DNA of 37,246 nucleotides, taken from NCBI GenBank assembly GCA_015232025.1, contig JADGAL010000004.1:1-37246 (forward strand), in the 5' to 3' direction. Source of the stretch: Alphaproteobacteria bacterium (GTDB lineage: Bacteria; Pseudomonadota; Alphaproteobacteria; Rhodospirillales; Magnetospirillaceae). Below the pieces are notes generated by a model. The model searched no databases. It had not been told where the DNA came from and was given only the letters and a program-made list of their open reading frames with translations. This document shows, in pieces, positions 10,535 to 27,618 of this stretch; the first letter of the stretch is position 1; every line of letters starts with the position of its first letter. The position numbers and the translations under genes are program-made.

Positions 10535-11545
10535 TCAGCGCAACGGGCCGCCGCGGCGCACCGTGTCGATCCCGGCCGTGTCCAGGGGATCGGCGCCGTC
10601 GCCGCGAAGGTGGTACTTGTCGATGTTGTGATCGGCCAGGGCCTGGAGGTGCTCGCGCTCCTCGCGGGCCCGGTGATCGTCGGCGAACAGGTGGCGGAAG
10701 CGGTTTTGCAGCTTCAAATATTCGGTCACCGGCCGGGGCTCGCGAATCGGCATCACGCCGCCCAGTTCGCCGCGCTCAAGCTCGACCACCGGGAACAGGC
10801 CGCATTCGACGGCCAACCGCCCGATCTCGATGCTGCGCGAGGCGTCGTGGCCCCAGCCGAGCGGGCAGGGGCTGTGGACCAGCAGGAAGGTCGGCCCCTC
10901 GATATCGAGCGCGCGCCGCACCTTGCGCCGCAGATCGGCGGGGAACGACACGCTGGTCGAGGCGGCGTAGGGGACGTGATGCGCGGCGATGATGGACAAA
11001 AGGTCCTTCTTCATGTGCCGCTTGCCCATGCGCTCCTTGCCGGGGGGCGAGGTGGTGGTCATCGCCGCGTGCGGCGTCGACCCCGAGCGCTGGATGCCGG
11101 TGTTCATATAGGCTTCGTTGTCATAGCACACGTAAAGAACGTTGTGCATGCGCTCCAGCATGCCCGACAGCGCCTGGAAGCCGATATCGAAGGTGCCGCC
11201 GTCGCCGCCCATGGCGATGACCTTGGTGCGCTGGCCCTTGGCCTTCATGGCGGCCTCGACCCCCGAGGCGATCGCCGCCGAGTTCTCGAACAGCGAATGC
11301 AGCCATGGCACCCGCCACGCCGATTGCGGCCAGGGGGTGGTGAACACCTCGAGGCAGCCGGTGGCGTTGGTGACCACGACGTCGGGGCCGGCGGCCTCCA
11401 GCACCAGCCGGGCGGCCAGCGCCTCGCCGCAGCCCTGGCAGGCGCGATGGCCGGCTTCCAGGCCGCGCCAGCGGGGCTGGCGGTCGCGGGGCGACAGTTC
11501 TTGCGGCGGCGCTTCGGGCGCGGCGGGTTCGATCTTGTTCATCAC
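10535..11545 (-). CDS. 2-oxoacid:acceptor oxidoreductase, beta (TPP-binding) subunit
   Basis: HRACQGCGEALAARL, GDGGTFDIGFQALSGMLERMHNVLYVCYDNEAYMNTGIQRSGSTP. Confidence 0.9.
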   Translation of the reverse strand: MMNKIEPAAPEAPPQELSPRDRQPRWRGLEAGHRACQGCGEALAARLVLEAAGPDVVVTNATGCLEVFTTPWPQSAWRVPWLHSLFENSAAIASGVEAAMKAKGQRTKVIAMGGDGGTFDIGFQALSGMLERMHNVLYVCYDNEAYMNTGIQRSGSTPHAAMTTTSPPGKERMGKRHMKKDLLSIIAAHHVPYAASTSVSFPADLRRKVRRALDIEGPTFLLVHSPCPLGWGHDASRSIEIGRLAVECGLFPVVELERGELGGVMPIREPRPVTEYLKLQNRFRHLFADDHRAREEREHLQALADHNIDKYHLRGDGADPLDTAGIDTVRRGGPLR

Positions 11546-12714
11546 CGCTCCTCCACCGGCAGTTTCTCCAATTCGACGTCGAGGATCGAGAAGCTCGGCT
11601 CCCCGTCGCGGGCCACCGCGTCCATCAGGCGCGGCCAGGTCTCCAGCGGAATGTCGCGACCGCCCAGGCCGACCGCGAATTCATGGACCACCGGCTGGCG
11701 CTTCATGCCCATCAAGGCCGCCTTGACCTCGACGCCCAGAATGCCGCCGGCGCCGGGCGAGATCGCCCGCTCCAGCACCACCACGTCCTTGCAGCCCTCG
11801 CAGGCGGCGCGGATTTCGGCCGCCGGGAAGGGGCGGAAGGTGCGCAGCTTGATCAGCTTGGCCTTGCGCTTGGTCGGATAGACCGACATCGCCTCGCGAA
11901 TCGTGCAAACCGTCGAGCCCATGATGATGATCGCGGTGCGCGCGTCCTCGGGGCCTTCGACGGTCAGCAGGCCGCCGCACGAGCGGCCGGTGAGCGCCGC
12001 CCAATCGGCGTCGGCCGCCAGAATCTCGGCGGTCGATTTCATCAAGGCGGCGTGGTGCGAATGGCGCGCCTCGGTGAAGTGCTCCGGCCCCACCAGGGTG
12101 CCCAGGCTAAGCGGCGCCCGCGGGTCGAGCTTGCGCGAGAAATTGAGCGGCGGCAGGTACTTGTCGACCAGTTTCTGATCCGGCATCTCAATTGTTTCAA
12201 GCGTGTGGGTCAGCACGAAGCCGTCCATGCACACCATCACCGGCAACTCGGTCGCCTCGGCGATGCGGAACGCCTGGATCGAGGTGTCGACCGCCTCTTG
12301 ATTGTCCACGCAATGGATCTGGATCCATCCGGCATCGCGCACCGCCATCGAATCCTGGTGGTCGTTCCAGATGTTGATCGGCGCCGAGACGGCCCGGTTG
12401 GCGCAGGTCAGCACCACCGGCAGACGCAGCCCGGCGATGTTGAACAGCACCTCGGTCATCAGCAGGATGCCCTGCGAGGACGACGCGGTGTAGGACCGGG
12501 CGCCGGCCGCCGACGAGCCCAGCACCACCGAGGCGGCCGAGAATTCCGACTCGACGCTGACCAGTTCGCAGATCAGCTTGCCGTCGGCGACCAGCTTCGA
12601 GATGTTCTCGACGATGTGGGTCTGCGGCGTGATGGGATAGGCGGCCACCACTTCGGGCCGGCACATGGCGACGGCGCGAGCGACCGCCTGACTGCCTTCG
12701 AGAGCTTCAAGCAT
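11542..12714 (-). CDS. 2-oxoacid:acceptor oxidoreductase, alpha subunit
   Basis: AAYPITPQTHIVE, VESEFSAASVVLGSSAAGARSYTASSSQG, KLIKLRTFRPFPAAEI. Confidence 0.9.
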   Translation of the reverse strand: MLEALEGSQAVARAVAMCRPEVVAAYPITPQTHIVENISKLVADGKLICELVSVESEFSAASVVLGSSAAGARSYTASSSQGILLMTEVLFNIAGLRLPVVLTCANRAVSAPINIWNDHQDSMAVRDAGWIQIHCVDNQEAVDTSIQAFRIAEATELPVMVCMDGFVLTHTLETIEMPDQKLVDKYLPPLNFSRKLDPRAPLSLGTLVGPEHFTEARHSHHAALMKSTAEILAADADWAALTGRSCGGLLTVEGPEDARTAIIIMGSTVCTIREAMSVYPTKRKAKLIKLRTFRPFPAAEIRAACEGCKDVVVLERAISPGAGGILGVEVKAALMGMKRQPVVHEFAVGLGGRDIPLETWPRLMDAVARDGEPSFSILDVELEKLPVEER

Positions 12715-23200: not shown

Positions 23201-23441
23201 AGGTCGCCCGCACTGCGTCGACTCGATGCTGTCGGGTCAGGTGCAGTTGGTCGTCAACACCACCGAGGGCGCCACCGCCATCGCCGACAGCTTCTCGATC
23301 CGGCGCACCGCGTTGAGCATCAACATCCCGCACTACACCACGGTGGCCGGGGCGCGGGCCGCCGTCGACGCCATCGAGGCCCTGAAGTGTGGGGCACTTG
23401 ATGTCGCCCCGCTCCAATCGTATTCTATCGGTTCCTTTTGA
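20205..23441 (+). CDS. carB: Carbamoyl-phosphate synthase large subunit
   Basis: [37 protein letters not shown]..., duplicated ATP-grasp halves and C-terminal MGS domain; TGATG overlap with carA. Confidence 0.98.
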
Positions 23442-23484
23442 ACGCCGTCCCGGCGGCGTTAGTCCAGTCACGCTCGGGGACCCC

Positions 23485-23958
23485 ATGGAAAAGATACCGA
23501 TGTCGCCGGCCGGTTTGGCCAGCCTCGAGTTGGAATTGAAGCATCTCAAGAGCGTGGAGCGGCCCGCCATCATTCGCGCCATCGCCGAGGCGCGCGAGCA
23601 CGGCGACCTGTCCGAGAACGCCGAGTACCACGCGGCGCGCGAACGCCAAAGCTTCACCGAAGGCCGGATCGCCGAGTTGGAGGACGTGATCAGCCGCGCC
23701 CAGGTGATCGACGTCAGCACGATGTCGGGCACCGTCGTCCGCTTCGGCGCGACCGTCACCCTGGCCGACGAGGACACCGACGACGAAAGCGCCTACACCC
23801 TGGTCGGCGCCCACGAATCCGACATCAAATCGGGCCGCCTGTCGGTCCACGCCCCGCTGGCCCGCGCCCTGATCGGCAAGACGGTGGGCGACACCATCGA
23901 GGTCAGCACCCCCAGCGGCTCGAAGATGTACCAGATCGTCGACGTGAAATTCGTCTGA
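23485..23958 (+). CDS. greA: Transcription elongation factor GreA
   Basis: [66 protein letters not shown]. Confidence 0.97.
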
Positions 23959-24049
23959 GGGCGCTTGTTCATCGTCTTTCCCGCGATCACTCGGGGCGGA
24001 CGACCTAACAGGCTGTTTTCTTTATCGTCATGTGTGGACGGCCCCTGCT

Positions 24050-24240
24050 TGGCAAGGGAAAAATCAACGATGCGAGCGACCAGGCTGTTGCAGTCATGTG
24101 TCCGGCCTGTTTTCGCGGCTGAACGACCGCTGGCCATGATGTGATCCGCGACACGCTCCCAAATCATTCCCGCGACCTGAGACGGCCGTGACGGTACAAG
24201 GGTTCTGCGGTCGTGGAGTTGGTCGGTCGCCATCACGCTG
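24050..24240 (-). ncRNA. Putative bridge RNA / seekRNA region of the IS110-family element
   Basis: Non-coding segment 3' of the transposase with four short matches to its own target halves and element ends (see findings). Boundaries approximate. Confidence 0.6.
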
Positions 24241-24281
24241 TCTTCGCCCTCGCTTCTGGTCCCCTGTGTCTCGCGCTTGGA

Positions 24282-25310
24282 TCAGGCGGCGGTCGCGACC
24301 TGGGGCGGCTGGTAGATGCCGCCCTTGACGAGGATGGCCCAGACGATGCGGGCCATCTTGTTGGCGAGCGCGACGGTCGCCTTGCGCGCCGACATGCGGC
24401 CGAGCAGCGCGTCGAGCCAAGGCGCGAATCCGTGGTTGCGCCTCCTGAGCATCGCGGTGGCGCCCAGCACGAGCAGGGATCGCAAATAGCGGTCCCCGGT
24501 TTTGGTGATCGGCCCGAGCGCCGTCTTGCCGCCAGTGGAATTCTGCGACGGCACCAGGCCCAGCCATGCCGAGAGGTCGCGCCCGCTCGAGAAGCGCTGC
24601 GGGTGGCCGATCGCGGTCACGAGGGCGCTGGCGATGTGCGGGCCGATGCCGGGGATGGTGGCCACCCGGCGGCTCGCCTCGTCGCTCTGGTGCAGCGCCC
24701 GGATTTGCTGGTTCAGCGCGTCGATCTTCGCTTCGGCCTCGCGCAACTGGGCGGCGAGCATGGCCAGCCCTTCCCGCGCGAAGGCCGGCAGCCCTGGGGC
24801 GTTGGCGTCCAAAGCCAGCACGATCAGCTTGCCAAGCCCTTTTTCTCCTTGCGCTTCGATGGTGCCGAATTCGGCGAGGTGCGACCGCACCGCGTTGGCG
24901 AGCATCGTGCGCTGGGTCACCAGCAGGTTGCGGGCCCGGTGAAGCACCAGCCCGGCTTGCTGCTCCGGCGACTTGACCGGAACGACGGTGATCCGCTTGC
25001 TCTGCAACGCCTCGCAGATCGCCGCCGCGTCGTTGGCGTCGTTCTTGCGGCCGCGCCGGACGTAGGGCTTCACGTGCGCTGGTGGGATCAGCCGAACCTC
25101 GTGCCCCAGCGCCACCATCTCCCGAGCCCAGTAATGCGACGTGGCGCAGGCCTCCATGCCGATCAGGCATGGCTCAAGCCGCGCGAAAAACCCGAGCACC
25201 TGGGCTCGGCGGAGCTGGCGCCGAACCGCCACCTCCCCATCCGCGTCGATGCCGTGGACCTGGAAAACCCCCTTCGCCAAATCCAACCCGATGATGCTAA
25301 TCTTATCCAT
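24282..25310 (-). CDS. IS110 family transposase (DEDD-type)
   Basis: MDKISIIGLDLAKGVFQVHGID, RRGRKNDANDAAAICEA, IPGIGPHIASALVTAIG, SAWLGLVPSQNSTGGKTALGPITKTGDRYLRSLLV. Confidence 0.96.
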   Translation of the reverse strand: MDKISIIGLDLAKGVFQVHGIDADGEVAVRRQLRRAQVLGFFARLEPCLIGMEACATSHYWAREMVALGHEVRLIPPAHVKPYVRRGRKNDANDAAAICEALQSKRITVVPVKSPEQQAGLVLHRARNLLVTQRTMLANAVRSHLAEFGTIEAQGEKGLGKLIVLALDANAPGLPAFAREGLAMLAAQLREAEAKIDALNQQIRALHQSDEASRRVATIPGIGPHIASALVTAIGHPQRFSSGRDLSAWLGLVPSQNSTGGKTALGPITKTGDRYLRSLLVLGATAMLRRRNHGFAPWLDALLGRMSARKATVALANKMARIVWAILVKGGIYQPPQVATAA

Positions 25311-25389
25311 GGACGGCCCCCTCTTGTGGCGTTGCACGACGACCACCTTATGGCACTTCGATGCCGGTGAGCAGGGGCCGTCCACCCCA

Positions 25390-25414
25390 TCATTCCCGCG
25401 AAAGCGGGAATCCA
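25390..25414. repeat. REP-type palindrome, first copy, interrupted at its 5' end by the IS110-family element
   Basis: TCATTCCCGCGAAAGCGGGAATCCA; its 'CG' prefix lies at 24026-24027 across the IS. Confidence 0.75.
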
Positions 25415-25465
25415 TCGTGCCGCCGCATCCTATTTGGCGGATCACTCCATCGCCACACCCCAAAA

Positions 25466-25493
25466 TGGACCCCCGCTTTTCGCGGGGGTGACG
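25466..25493. repeat. REP-type palindrome, second copy in opposite orientation
   Basis: TGGACCCCCGCTTTTCGCGGGGGTGACG, mirror-image to the first copy: a REP doublet. Confidence 0.7.
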
Positions 25494-25511
25494 CGCCAAG
25501 GAAGGCGAAGG

Positions 25512-26012
25512 CTATTCCTGCTCGGGCTCGGGGCCGGCCTGGACGTCGATCGGCACGCCCGGTTCCTGCTTCGAACTGCGAATCCCCAGCGCGGACTTGA
25601 CGTGGCTGATATTGGGCGCCGCCGTCAGCCGGGTGGTGAGGAAGCGCTGGTAGTCGTCCCAGTCATGCGCCACCACCTTCAGCAGGAAGTCGGTCTCGCC
25701 GGCCAGCATGTGGCACTCGCGCACCTCGGGCCAGCCCTGGACCAGCGCCTCGAACGCCTTGAGGTCGGCCTCGGCCTGGCTGTTCAGCCCGACATGGGCG
25801 AAGACGGTGACGTTGAAGCCCAGCGCCGCCGGATCGATCTGGGCGTGGTAGCCGCGGATGAAGCCCGCCTCCTCCAGCGCGCGCACCCGCCTTAGGCAGG
25901 GCGGCGCCGAAATCCCCGCCCGCCGGGCGAGTTCCACATTGGTCATCCGCCCGTCCGCCTGCAAATCGCTAAGGATGCGGCGGTCGATCCGGTCCAGCTT
26001 GACCCGTTGCAT
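25512..26012 (-). CDS. Lrp/AsnC family transcriptional regulator
   Basis: MQRVKLDRIDRRILSDLQADGRMTNVELARRAGISAPPCLRRVRALEEAGFIRGYHAQIDPAALGF. Confidence 0.95.
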   Translation of the reverse strand: MQRVKLDRIDRRILSDLQADGRMTNVELARRAGISAPPCLRRVRALEEAGFIRGYHAQIDPAALGFNVTVFAHVGLNSQAEADLKAFEALVQGWPEVRECHMLAGETDFLLKVVAHDWDDYQRFLTTRLTAAPNISHVKSALGIRSSKQEPGVPIDVQAGPEPEQE

Positions 26013-26049
26013 GGAAAATGCGTCTCCCAATCCCCTTTGCGCAATTATA

Positions 26050-27618
26050 TTACAATGGGCTGGTGGAGACGCCAAGCGCAACAATTCCGCCGTCGACCGT
26101 CCCGCGCTTGGCGGGATCGCGAATCCGCGCCTCTTCAAGCGTCGCGATGGCCACCCAAGGGGTGATCGAACAGTCGCTCAACGCGACGGCGAGGTGGTCG
26201 TCCTTTTCCCTGACGCTGAGCTTGCGCCGCCAGAAATCGTCGAGCACCGCCGCCACCTGGTCGCTGGGCGCGCCGACATGGCGGACGATGTCGACGAAGC
26301 GCCGCGGAACGTCGATGAACGCGTAAATGTCCGCGGCGAACCGGTCGAGCGTGATCCGGGTCTCGGCCGCGCACGGTCGCGTGTCGATGAGGGTGCCGCC
26401 ATCCGAATCGCGCCAAAACACCAGAAGCGCATTGCGCTCGACGCGCCGCCAATTGGACACCGTCTTCCACAAACCTCCGAGATCGACCTTCGGAAAATGA
26501 TCGGCTACTTCAAAGTCATATTTGCTGGCAATCGCAAACACGTCATCGTCCCCAAACGGATAAATATACCCTTGCCACTTATATATTCTTATGTTTGCAA
26601 CCCAAGTTCATCCGAACGTTCGAAGGCTGGACTGGACCTAACCATGTTGATATGCGATAAAATATTTGGGCACTGTAAATGAAAAATTCTTTCCGCAATT
26701 TCGATAGAGTCCTGAATGTCAGACTGCCCTTCTCCCGGAAACCCAACCAAGATGTTCCAATTGCATCTGATGTTCGCTTCCTTGGCGTATTTCAGCATCG
26801 CCACGTTGGTCAACGCGGTCACGCCTTTGTCGATGTACTTGAGTACATTGGTCGACAGTGATTCCACGCCGGCCTGCAACGCCCCGAACCCGGATCGCCT
26901 AGCCTTTTGCACGGCTCGGCGAGACATGTTCGACTTCACCGAGCCCATCAGGGTTAGGTTCGCGTCGGTCGAAATCAGTTCGTCGCAAACGTTTTCGATC
27001 AGCTTGCTCGACAGGATGCTGTCGGCGAAGCGCAACTGGCGAATGCCATGGCCGTCGACGATGTGGGCGATGTCGCGAAGAATGCGCCGGCTCGATTTCG
27101 CGCGATATTTTTTCCGGAAACGCCCGCTTCAGCCGCTTCGCCAGCGCGAGGGATGGCGAGAGCTGTAAATAGATGCACTCGAAGCCTATCACATCATAGG
27201 CATCCCAGGAAATATTGTTTAAACACTCTTCCAGGAACCCCCTTACCAATTTTGCCGTTTCCAATATATATTCAGAATATGCGAACTTTTGTCGCAGAGC
27301 GCTGCTCCTGTACTCATCGATGTATAAATCCGCCGTCGCCTGCGTCTCGGGAAACGCATCCAGCGCGAACATCCATTCGGCGCTATGGCGTATTTGGGCC
27401 AAGTCGAGTATTTTCGAGCAAAGTTGATTCAGCGGTAGGCCATCCCGAGCGGCCGCGGCGGCAAGCGCCGTTTCGACGGTCTTCTGCCATGCGATGTTCA
27501 GGTAGTGGATATCGCAGGTGGTGTCGGGATGTTCGAGGGCGATGGCTTTGAGATTGCTCAACCCCATCGCCGGTCCGGTGGAGTCGCGCCAAGGCATGGC
27601 TACCAGCGCGATGCGCAT
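26050..27618 (-). pseudogene. Decayed RiPP-maturation B12-binding radical SAM protein (TIGR03975-like), three fragments in two or more frames
   Basis: N-terminus MRIALVAMPWRDSTGPAMGLSNLKA...SPSLALAKRLKRAFPEK; middle YRAKSSRRILRDIAHIVDGHGIRQLRFADSIL...QAGVESLSTNVLKYIDKGVTALTNVAMLKYAKEANIRCNWNILVGFPGE; C-terminus YKWQGYIYPFGDDDVFAIASKYDFEVADHF. No CxxxCxxC retained. Confidence 0.82.

What the first reader, a model, noticed from the sequence alone, without database searches (positions are those of the whole stretch)
24026..25401. IS110/IS1111-type element whose 3' non-coding segment carries the guide layout of a bridge RNA/seekRNA aimed at a REP palindrome
Seen directly, read in transposase (minus) orientation. 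(1) Removing the IS across the shared TCA core rebuilds CGTCATTCCCGCGAAAGCGGGAATCCA, an intact REP. (2) The 3' non-coding segment contains, in order: CGTCA (24189-24193), complementary to the right target half TGACG; TCGCGGGAATGAT (24163-24175), a 13-nt match to the left target junction at 25389-25401, of which 12 nt are target; CATCAT (24136-24141), complementary to the transposase-proximal end ATGATG; ACACATGAC (24093-24101), a 9-nt match to the distal junction at 24027-24035. (3) The order complement-of-right then identity-to-left repeats for target and donor. Potential stems lie between the guides (CGGCC/GGTCG, GGCC/GGCC). Established: IS110/IS1111 elements use such RNAs (bridge RNA/seekRNA), and IS1111 members have subterminal IRs and a 3' non-coding region. 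The RNA identity is inference; the 5- and 6-nt matches alone would be weak.
Basis: partly seen in the sequence, partly recalled or inferred. Interest (0 to 1): 0.9.

Follow-up and report, generated by a model that had tools for sequence, protein, structure and literature searches.

The report
RNA-guided jumping gene in REP repeat
This is a mobile DNA element of the IS1111 kind that carries, behind its transposase gene, a guide RNA matching both the repeated palindrome it has jumped into and its own right end; such elements are known, but here the guide rules could be read base by base from 44 related elements, and one end repeat appears to double as a lid over the transposase start site.

Summary
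Window 24031-25392 (minus strand) is an intact IS1111-group insertion sequence inserted in a REP palindrome; removing it rebuilds a REP whose unoccupied copies exist elsewhere in the same genome. The 3' non-coding segment is a seekRNA/bridge RNA. A covariance model built only from 43 relatives finds it at 24092-24224 (79.9 bits, E 1e-19; next best 10.5 bits) and also finds ISEc11's 3' region, where a seekRNA was shown experimentally. Across 44 dissimilar elements the two target guides follow each element's own flanks, while control regions and wrong-sense matches do not; the left-donor guide follows the IS right end in 75 elements. Corrections: the left guide is 8 nt (GGGAATGA), not 12-13, because the extra TCGC lies outside the family's guide window; the right guide is 8 nt (TACCGTCA, 7/8 matched), not 5. 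The right-donor guide is conserved but could not be tested. An unexpected extra: the left subterminal repeat pairs with the Shine-Dalgarno/start region of the transposase mRNA, a hairpin that co-varies across relatives. So: a new member of a known kind, plus one regulatory feature I did not find described. No transcript was measured.

The parts
24031..25392 (-). whole insertion sequence (1362 bp); the TGA core (25390-25392 / 24028-24030) is shared with the target
   Evidence: subterminal repeats, 7-nt left and 3-nt right extensions, same layout in relatives, unoccupied REP copies in own genome
24282..25310 (-). transposase gene, 342 aa, intact, DEDD N-terminal domain plus PF02371 domain with GL-P----TG motif
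25370..25385 (-). left subterminal inverted repeat GTGGACGGCCCCTGCT
24034..24049 (-). right subterminal inverted repeat AGCAGGGGCCGTCCAC
24092..24224 (-). seekRNA/bridge RNA: two-domain fold with target loop then donor loop
   Evidence: held-out covariance model R1, 79.9 bits, E 1e-19
24189..24196 (-). right-target guide TACCGTCA, 7/8 complementary to right flank TGACGATA
   Evidence: position and length from 44 elements
24164..24171 (-). left-target guide GGGAATGA, identical to left flank GGGAA + core TGA
   Evidence: per-position agreement in 44 elements
24137..24141 (-). putative right-donor guide CATCA, complementary to IS left end TGATG
   Evidence: sequence; conserved in relatives but donor end nearly invariant, so covariation not testable
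24094..24101 (-). left-donor guide ACACATGA, identical to IS right end ACACA + TGA
   Evidence: varies together with the IS right end in 75 elements
24026..24030 (-). right part of the interrupted REP (TGACG in transposase orientation; TGA is the core)
25390..25414 (-). left part of the interrupted REP, TGGATTCCCGCTTTCGCGGGAATGA
25310..25385 (-). transposase mRNA leader: left subterminal repeat pairs with Shine-Dalgarno GAGGGGG (25317-25323) and start codon; inner hairpin GGCAT/GTGCC (25352-25365)
   Evidence: fold z -3.46; 8 of 11 stem pairs with both-side changes in 42 sequences
24050..24055 (-). -35-like TTGCCA; with CATGAT formed by the circle junction (24031-24032 joined to 25389-25392) a junction promoter with 17-nt spacing
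   Evidence: inference from sequence

Best explanation
An autonomous IS1111-group insertion sequence. Shown by sequence: intact DEDD transposase, subterminal repeats, insertion into a REP, a 3' RNA fold shared with relatives, target guides that follow the flanks and a left-donor guide that follows the right end. Inferred from published work on ISEc11, ISPa11 and IS621: the element circularises, the RE-LE junction promoter transcribes the transposase and 3' RNA, the processed RNA binds the transposase, its first loop pairs with the two strands of a REP half-site (GGGAA-TGA-CGnTA) and its second loop with the circle junction (ACACA-TGA-TGGGG), and strands are exchanged at the shared TGA core. 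The element thereby inserts in one position and orientation into a repeat family with about 15 exact sites in this genome. In addition the left subterminal repeat pairs with the ribosome-binding site, probably keeping transposase translation low.
For: Boundaries regular in 79 elements, window included. Own flank beats other elements' flanks: left z 11.6, right z 8.7-9.3, control regions and wrong sense about 0. Guide lengths. Left-donor guide z 8.6, 12.3 and 9.3 at the variable positions. Fold covariation. Held-out model hit in the window, ISEc11 64.9 bits and IS4321/IS5075 about 40 bits. Same guide at the same kind of target despite 50% transposase identity, and different guides and targets at 73% identity. 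Leader stem.
Against: No transcript data. The single-sequence fold of the RNA is not more stable than shuffles (z -0.57). Only one copy of the element in an 81%-complete genome, so its own retargeting or repeated use of REP sites is not observed. One mismatch in the right guide. A few relatives do not match at one guide, e.g. L003.
Confidence: 0.95

Rival explanations
1. The REP-like string in the 3' segment is a captured or chance REP fragment; the transposase protein itself recognises REP hairpins.
For: REPs are common in this genome and palindromic targets are frequent among close relatives.
Against: The segment lies at a fixed place in a conserved fold and changes to match non-REP targets in relatives. 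Transposases 64% identical use different targets, whereas 50%-identical ones with the same guide use the same kind of target.
Confidence: 0.03
2. The 3' RNA is only a regulator of the transposase (as proposed for Ssr9 of ISPpu9), not a targeting guide.
For: ISPpu9 has a 3' sense RNA reported to pair with an antisense RNA against its mRNA leader (PMC8450116).
Against: A regulator would not need to co-vary with chromosomal flanks, which the target guides do. The regulator reading predates the discovery of bridge RNAs.
Confidence: 0.02
3. For the leader: the repeat next to the start codon is a third DNA copy of the end repeat, a binding site for the transposase (operator), not an RNA hairpin.
For: 15 of 17 nt identical to the right-end repeat (family D4). 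Stem mismatches outnumber G-U pairs.
Against: In ISEc11 and a Cupriavidus element the leader model still matches and the start site is hidden by a stem whose left arm is not the end repeat. The inner hairpin is also conserved, and the interior folds better than shuffles (mean z -1.51).
Confidence: 0.3

Closest known systems
ISEc11 and its seekRNA (IS1111 group; PMC11187229)
   Same: 3' non-coding RNA, order of target matches, subterminal repeats, 7-nt left extension, junction promoter; the relatives-only covariance model finds ISEc11's RNA at 64.9 bits
   Different: Different guides and target (GTGAAAATACTG for ISEc11); transposase 41% identical; longer left end in ISEc11
ISPa11 (IS1111 group, inserts in Pseudomonas aeruginosa REPs; PMC11187229, PMC1525189)
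   Same: REP-targeting IS1111 element; a 3' seekRNA was co-purified with its transposase in the published work
   Different: Different REP sequence, host lineage and element; ISPa11 was not aligned here
IS621 bridge RNA (IS110 group; PMC11208160)
   Same: Target and donor loops each with left and right guides around a shared core; REP-type targets
   Different: IS621 RNA is in the left end and IS110-type RNAs have the reverse guide order; weak sequence match of the transposase C-terminal part only (8wt6, E 4e-8)
ISPpu9 5'-UTR of the transposase mRNA (PMC8450116)
   Same: mRNA leader structure hides the ribosome-binding site; weakening it raised translation about 26-fold in the published work
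   Different: There the leader is 244 nt with an antisense RNA and no end-repeat arm is described; here the left end repeat itself is one strand of the stem

Membership tests
IS1111 group of IS110-type insertion sequences | DEDD transposase with PF01548 and PF02371 domains, 330-350 aa | tested here: met
   PF02371 E 2.7e-23, PF01548 E 4e-17, 342 aa; GLVPSQNSTG fits GL-P----S(t)G
IS1111 group of IS110-type insertion sequences | subterminal inverted repeats with about 7-nt left and 3-nt right extensions | tested here: met
   16/16 repeat; TGATGGG and ACA extensions, same in relatives
IS1111 group of IS110-type insertion sequences | long non-coding region downstream of the transposase gene | tested here: met
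   232 nt between the stop codon and the right repeat, of which 133 nt are the RNA fold
IS1111 group of IS110-type insertion sequences | site- and orientation-specific insertion without target duplication | tested here: met
   single shared TGA core, rebuilt REP matches unoccupied copies; one copy only
IS1111 group of IS110-type insertion sequences | circular intermediate with junction promoter | not testable with these tools
   predicted TTGCCA-17-CATGAT across the junction, conserved position in relatives
seekRNA / bridge RNA | conserved structured RNA in the non-coding end | tested here: met
   held-out model E 1e-19, compensatory pairs
seekRNA / bridge RNA | two target guides matching opposite strands and changing with target | tested here: met
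seekRNA / bridge RNA | two donor guides matching the IS ends | tested here: inconclusive
   left-donor guide met; right-donor guide CATCA is conserved but its partner hardly varies
seekRNA / bridge RNA | RNA expressed and bound to the transposase | not testable with these tools
   no RNA data
REP-targeting IS (type 1 of Tobes and Pareja, PMC1525189) | IS flanked by the two halves of a broken REP | tested here: met

The most novel reading that the evidence does not exclude
In IS1111-group elements the left subterminal repeat is dual-use: a DNA end feature and one strand of an mRNA hairpin that hides the transposase's Shine-Dalgarno sequence and start codon. End sequence and translational control would be evolutionarily locked together, visible as compensatory changes when the repeat changes (GTGGAC/GTCCA, GTGACC/GGTCA, GTAGAC/GTCTA, GTGGAAC/GTTCCA).
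Probability: 0.6. Interest if true: 0.6.

Novelty: new member of a known kind. Interest (0 to 1): 0.45.

Why it matters
The kind (RNA-guided IS1111 recombinases) has been known since 2024, so the element itself is not a surprise. What adds value: guide lengths and tolerances for this mostly alphaproteobacterial branch (left guide 5 target bases plus a 3-base core, right guide 8 bases with a lenient sixth base, donor guide following the right end) are read directly from natural covariation; one element pair shows natural retargeting at 73% transposase identity and another shows the same guide at 50% identity. That gives ready-made orthogonal candidates for programmable insertion. The end-repeat/ribosome-site hairpin would explain how transposase levels stay low and would have to be respected when IS ends are redesigned.

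Tried and rejected
Rfam at gathering thresholds: no family hit in the window. Longest-common-substring test over the whole 3' region: signal present, but one element (L081, at a contig end) had a corrupted flank, so it was removed and the test repeated with fixed regions. Pattern search for the left junction in 385 class genomes gave mainly scattered 2-mismatch hits, which I did not follow up. Pattern search for the guide in viral contigs: 41 hits, none of which the RNA model recognises as seekRNA. RNAalifold on the leader alignment found only the inner hairpin because gaps split the outer stem; the stem was then specified and counted. Considered and weakened: that the leader stem acts only on read-through transcripts. 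The predicted junction-promoter start lies inside the left repeat and the Shine-Dalgarno stays paired (mean unpaired probability 0.12) with either 5' end; only start-codon access changes, e.g. 0.37 with the full repeat against 0.85 for a start at 25383.

Full report
What is there. Read on the minus strand, 25392 to 24031 is a 1362-bp insertion sequence. The transposase (24282-25310, 342 aa, no stops) has both IS110-type domains. The subterminal repeats GTGGACGGCCCCTGCT / AGCAGGGGCCGTCCAC are perfect over 16 nt, with a 7-nt left extension TGATGGG and a 3-nt right extension ACA, the arrangement of IS1111-group elements (the 7-nt left extension is stated in PMC11187229; the 3-nt right extension is from my own knowledge). 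The same layout was found in 79 elements, window included.

Target. The rejoined flanks give CGGCGGCACGATGGATTCCCGCTTTCGCGGGAATGACGATAAAG. The same genome holds unoccupied copies of this REP, for example CGGCGGTACAATGGATTCCCGCTTTCGCGGGAATGACGATGAAA (L097). The 14-mer TCGCGGGAATGACG occurs 15 times and its reversed control never. The IS lies between a greA-like gene (23389-23958) and an Lrp-type gene (25512-26138), named from their translations without a family search, and interrupts neither.

RNA. From 43 relatives, without the window, an alignment gave a consensus fold with 23 pairs in five helices. 96% of cells pair, 18 pairs show changes on both sides, and 142 cells are compensatory against 38 in shuffles; every slid control falls to 24-43% paired. 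The covariance model from these relatives hits the window once with confidence: 24092-24224, 79.9 bits, E 1e-19; the next hit has 10.5 bits. In the whole genome the next best is 18.9 bits. The model also finds the 3' regions of ISEc11 (64.9 bits), IS4321 and IS5075 (about 40 bits). ISEc11's 3' region is the one from which a seekRNA was experimentally isolated (PMC11187229). A single-sequence fold of the window RNA is not exceptional (z -0.57), so the fold rests on covariation.

Guides. In 44 elements chosen so that 3' regions share less than 30% of their 12-mers, the five target bases left of the core match the element's own left-guide region far better than other elements' flanks do (z 11.6), and the right flank likewise matches the right-guide region (z 8.7 to 9.3). 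The same flanks tested against other parts of the RNA, or in the wrong sense, give z between -2.0 and 1.7. Per position, the left guide covers exactly target bases -5 to -1 (agreement 0.84-0.91 against 0.28-0.38 permuted) plus the TGA core; base -6 and outward are at chance. The right guide covers right-target bases 1 to 8, base 6 being the least strict of bases 2-8 (0.70). For the window this means GGGAATGA (24164-24171), fully matched, and TACCGTCA (24189-24196), matched 7 of 8 with the mismatch at base 6. The left-donor guide (7 letters compared) equals the right end of the IS in 68 of 75 elements, including variants ATACATG, ACATATG, ACAAATG, ACAGATG and ATGTATG. The right-donor guide CATCA is conserved, but its partner TGATG hardly varies, so it stays inference. 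Durrant and colleagues already proposed donor guides for several IS1111 elements by inspection (PMC11208160).

Natural retargeting. The nearest relatives (64% identical transposase, several copies in related genomes) have the same right guide CGTCA but AAATCTGA or AAATGTGA as left guide, and lie at CAAATCTGA / CAAATATGA followed by CG, mostly inside another palindrome. L140, from a viral-contig collection, has a transposase only 50% identical to the window's yet the same TCGCGGGAATGA, and lies at CGCCGGGAATGA in a REP-like palindrome. Its 73%-identical relative L022 has a different guide and target. The guide follows the target, not the protein.

Leader. The left repeat is also complementary to the ribosome-binding site and start codon. 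Nucleotides 25296-25385 fold into a 13-bp stem hiding GAGGGGG and AUG (-41.7 kcal/mol, z -3.46). In 42 sequences 8 of the 11 specified stem pairs have changes on both sides (58 both-side-changed cells against 21 in shuffles for the whole structure), and slid controls collapse. Full leaders average z -2.48 and the interior alone -1.51. A third DNA copy of the repeat would also covary, so this alone does not prove RNA pairing. But in ISEc11 and a Cupriavidus element the leader model matches where the left arm is not the end repeat, and a stem still covers the start region. IS4321/IS5075 fold similarly but with weaker complementarity. ISPpu9 is the published precedent for a leader hiding the ribosome-binding site, with 26-fold higher translation after weakening it (PMC8450116); the passages of that paper I read do not describe the end repeat as an arm, and I found no such statement in the held papers searched.

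Promoter. TTGCCA and CATGAT with 17-nt spacing form across the circle junction; the same register is the best site in 26 of 44 elements. The predicted start lies inside the left repeat, so the stem can form in circle transcripts too; selective silencing of read-through transcripts is therefore not specifically supported.

Verdict. Observation confirmed, interpretation supported and sharpened. It is a new member of a known kind. The leader hairpin is the part that may be new to specialists.

Noticed in passing
25462-25495: A second REP-like palindrome (CCCCCGCTTTTCGCGGGGGTGACG) lies about 70 nt from the interrupted one, so the insertion is in a REP pair or cluster; this copy differs from the left guide by two bases.
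   Followed up: partly
23968-23990: A degraded REP arm (GTCTTTCCCGCGA, 85% like the target arm) lies just beyond the right flank of the IS.
   Followed up: no
25310-25326: Third near-copy of the subterminal repeat overlapping the transposase start codon, conserved with compensatory changes in relatives.
   Followed up: yes
L083, L094, L109, L113: The same IS relative sits at the same palindrome with identical flanks in four related genomes, suggesting one old shared insertion or a repeated host sequence; L094 is a shortened copy (1093 bp) lacking part of the transposase gene and the target half of the RNA.
   Followed up: partly
L140 (IMGVR_UViG_2540341127_000001), reverse complement 10727-12115: An IS of a different branch inside a contig classed as viral carries the same left guide and sits in a REP-like palindrome.
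   Followed up: partly
L002 (own genome, contig C222 7536-8486): A second, distant IS110-type transposase (31% identical) in the same genome; its own RNA was not analysed.
   Followed up: no
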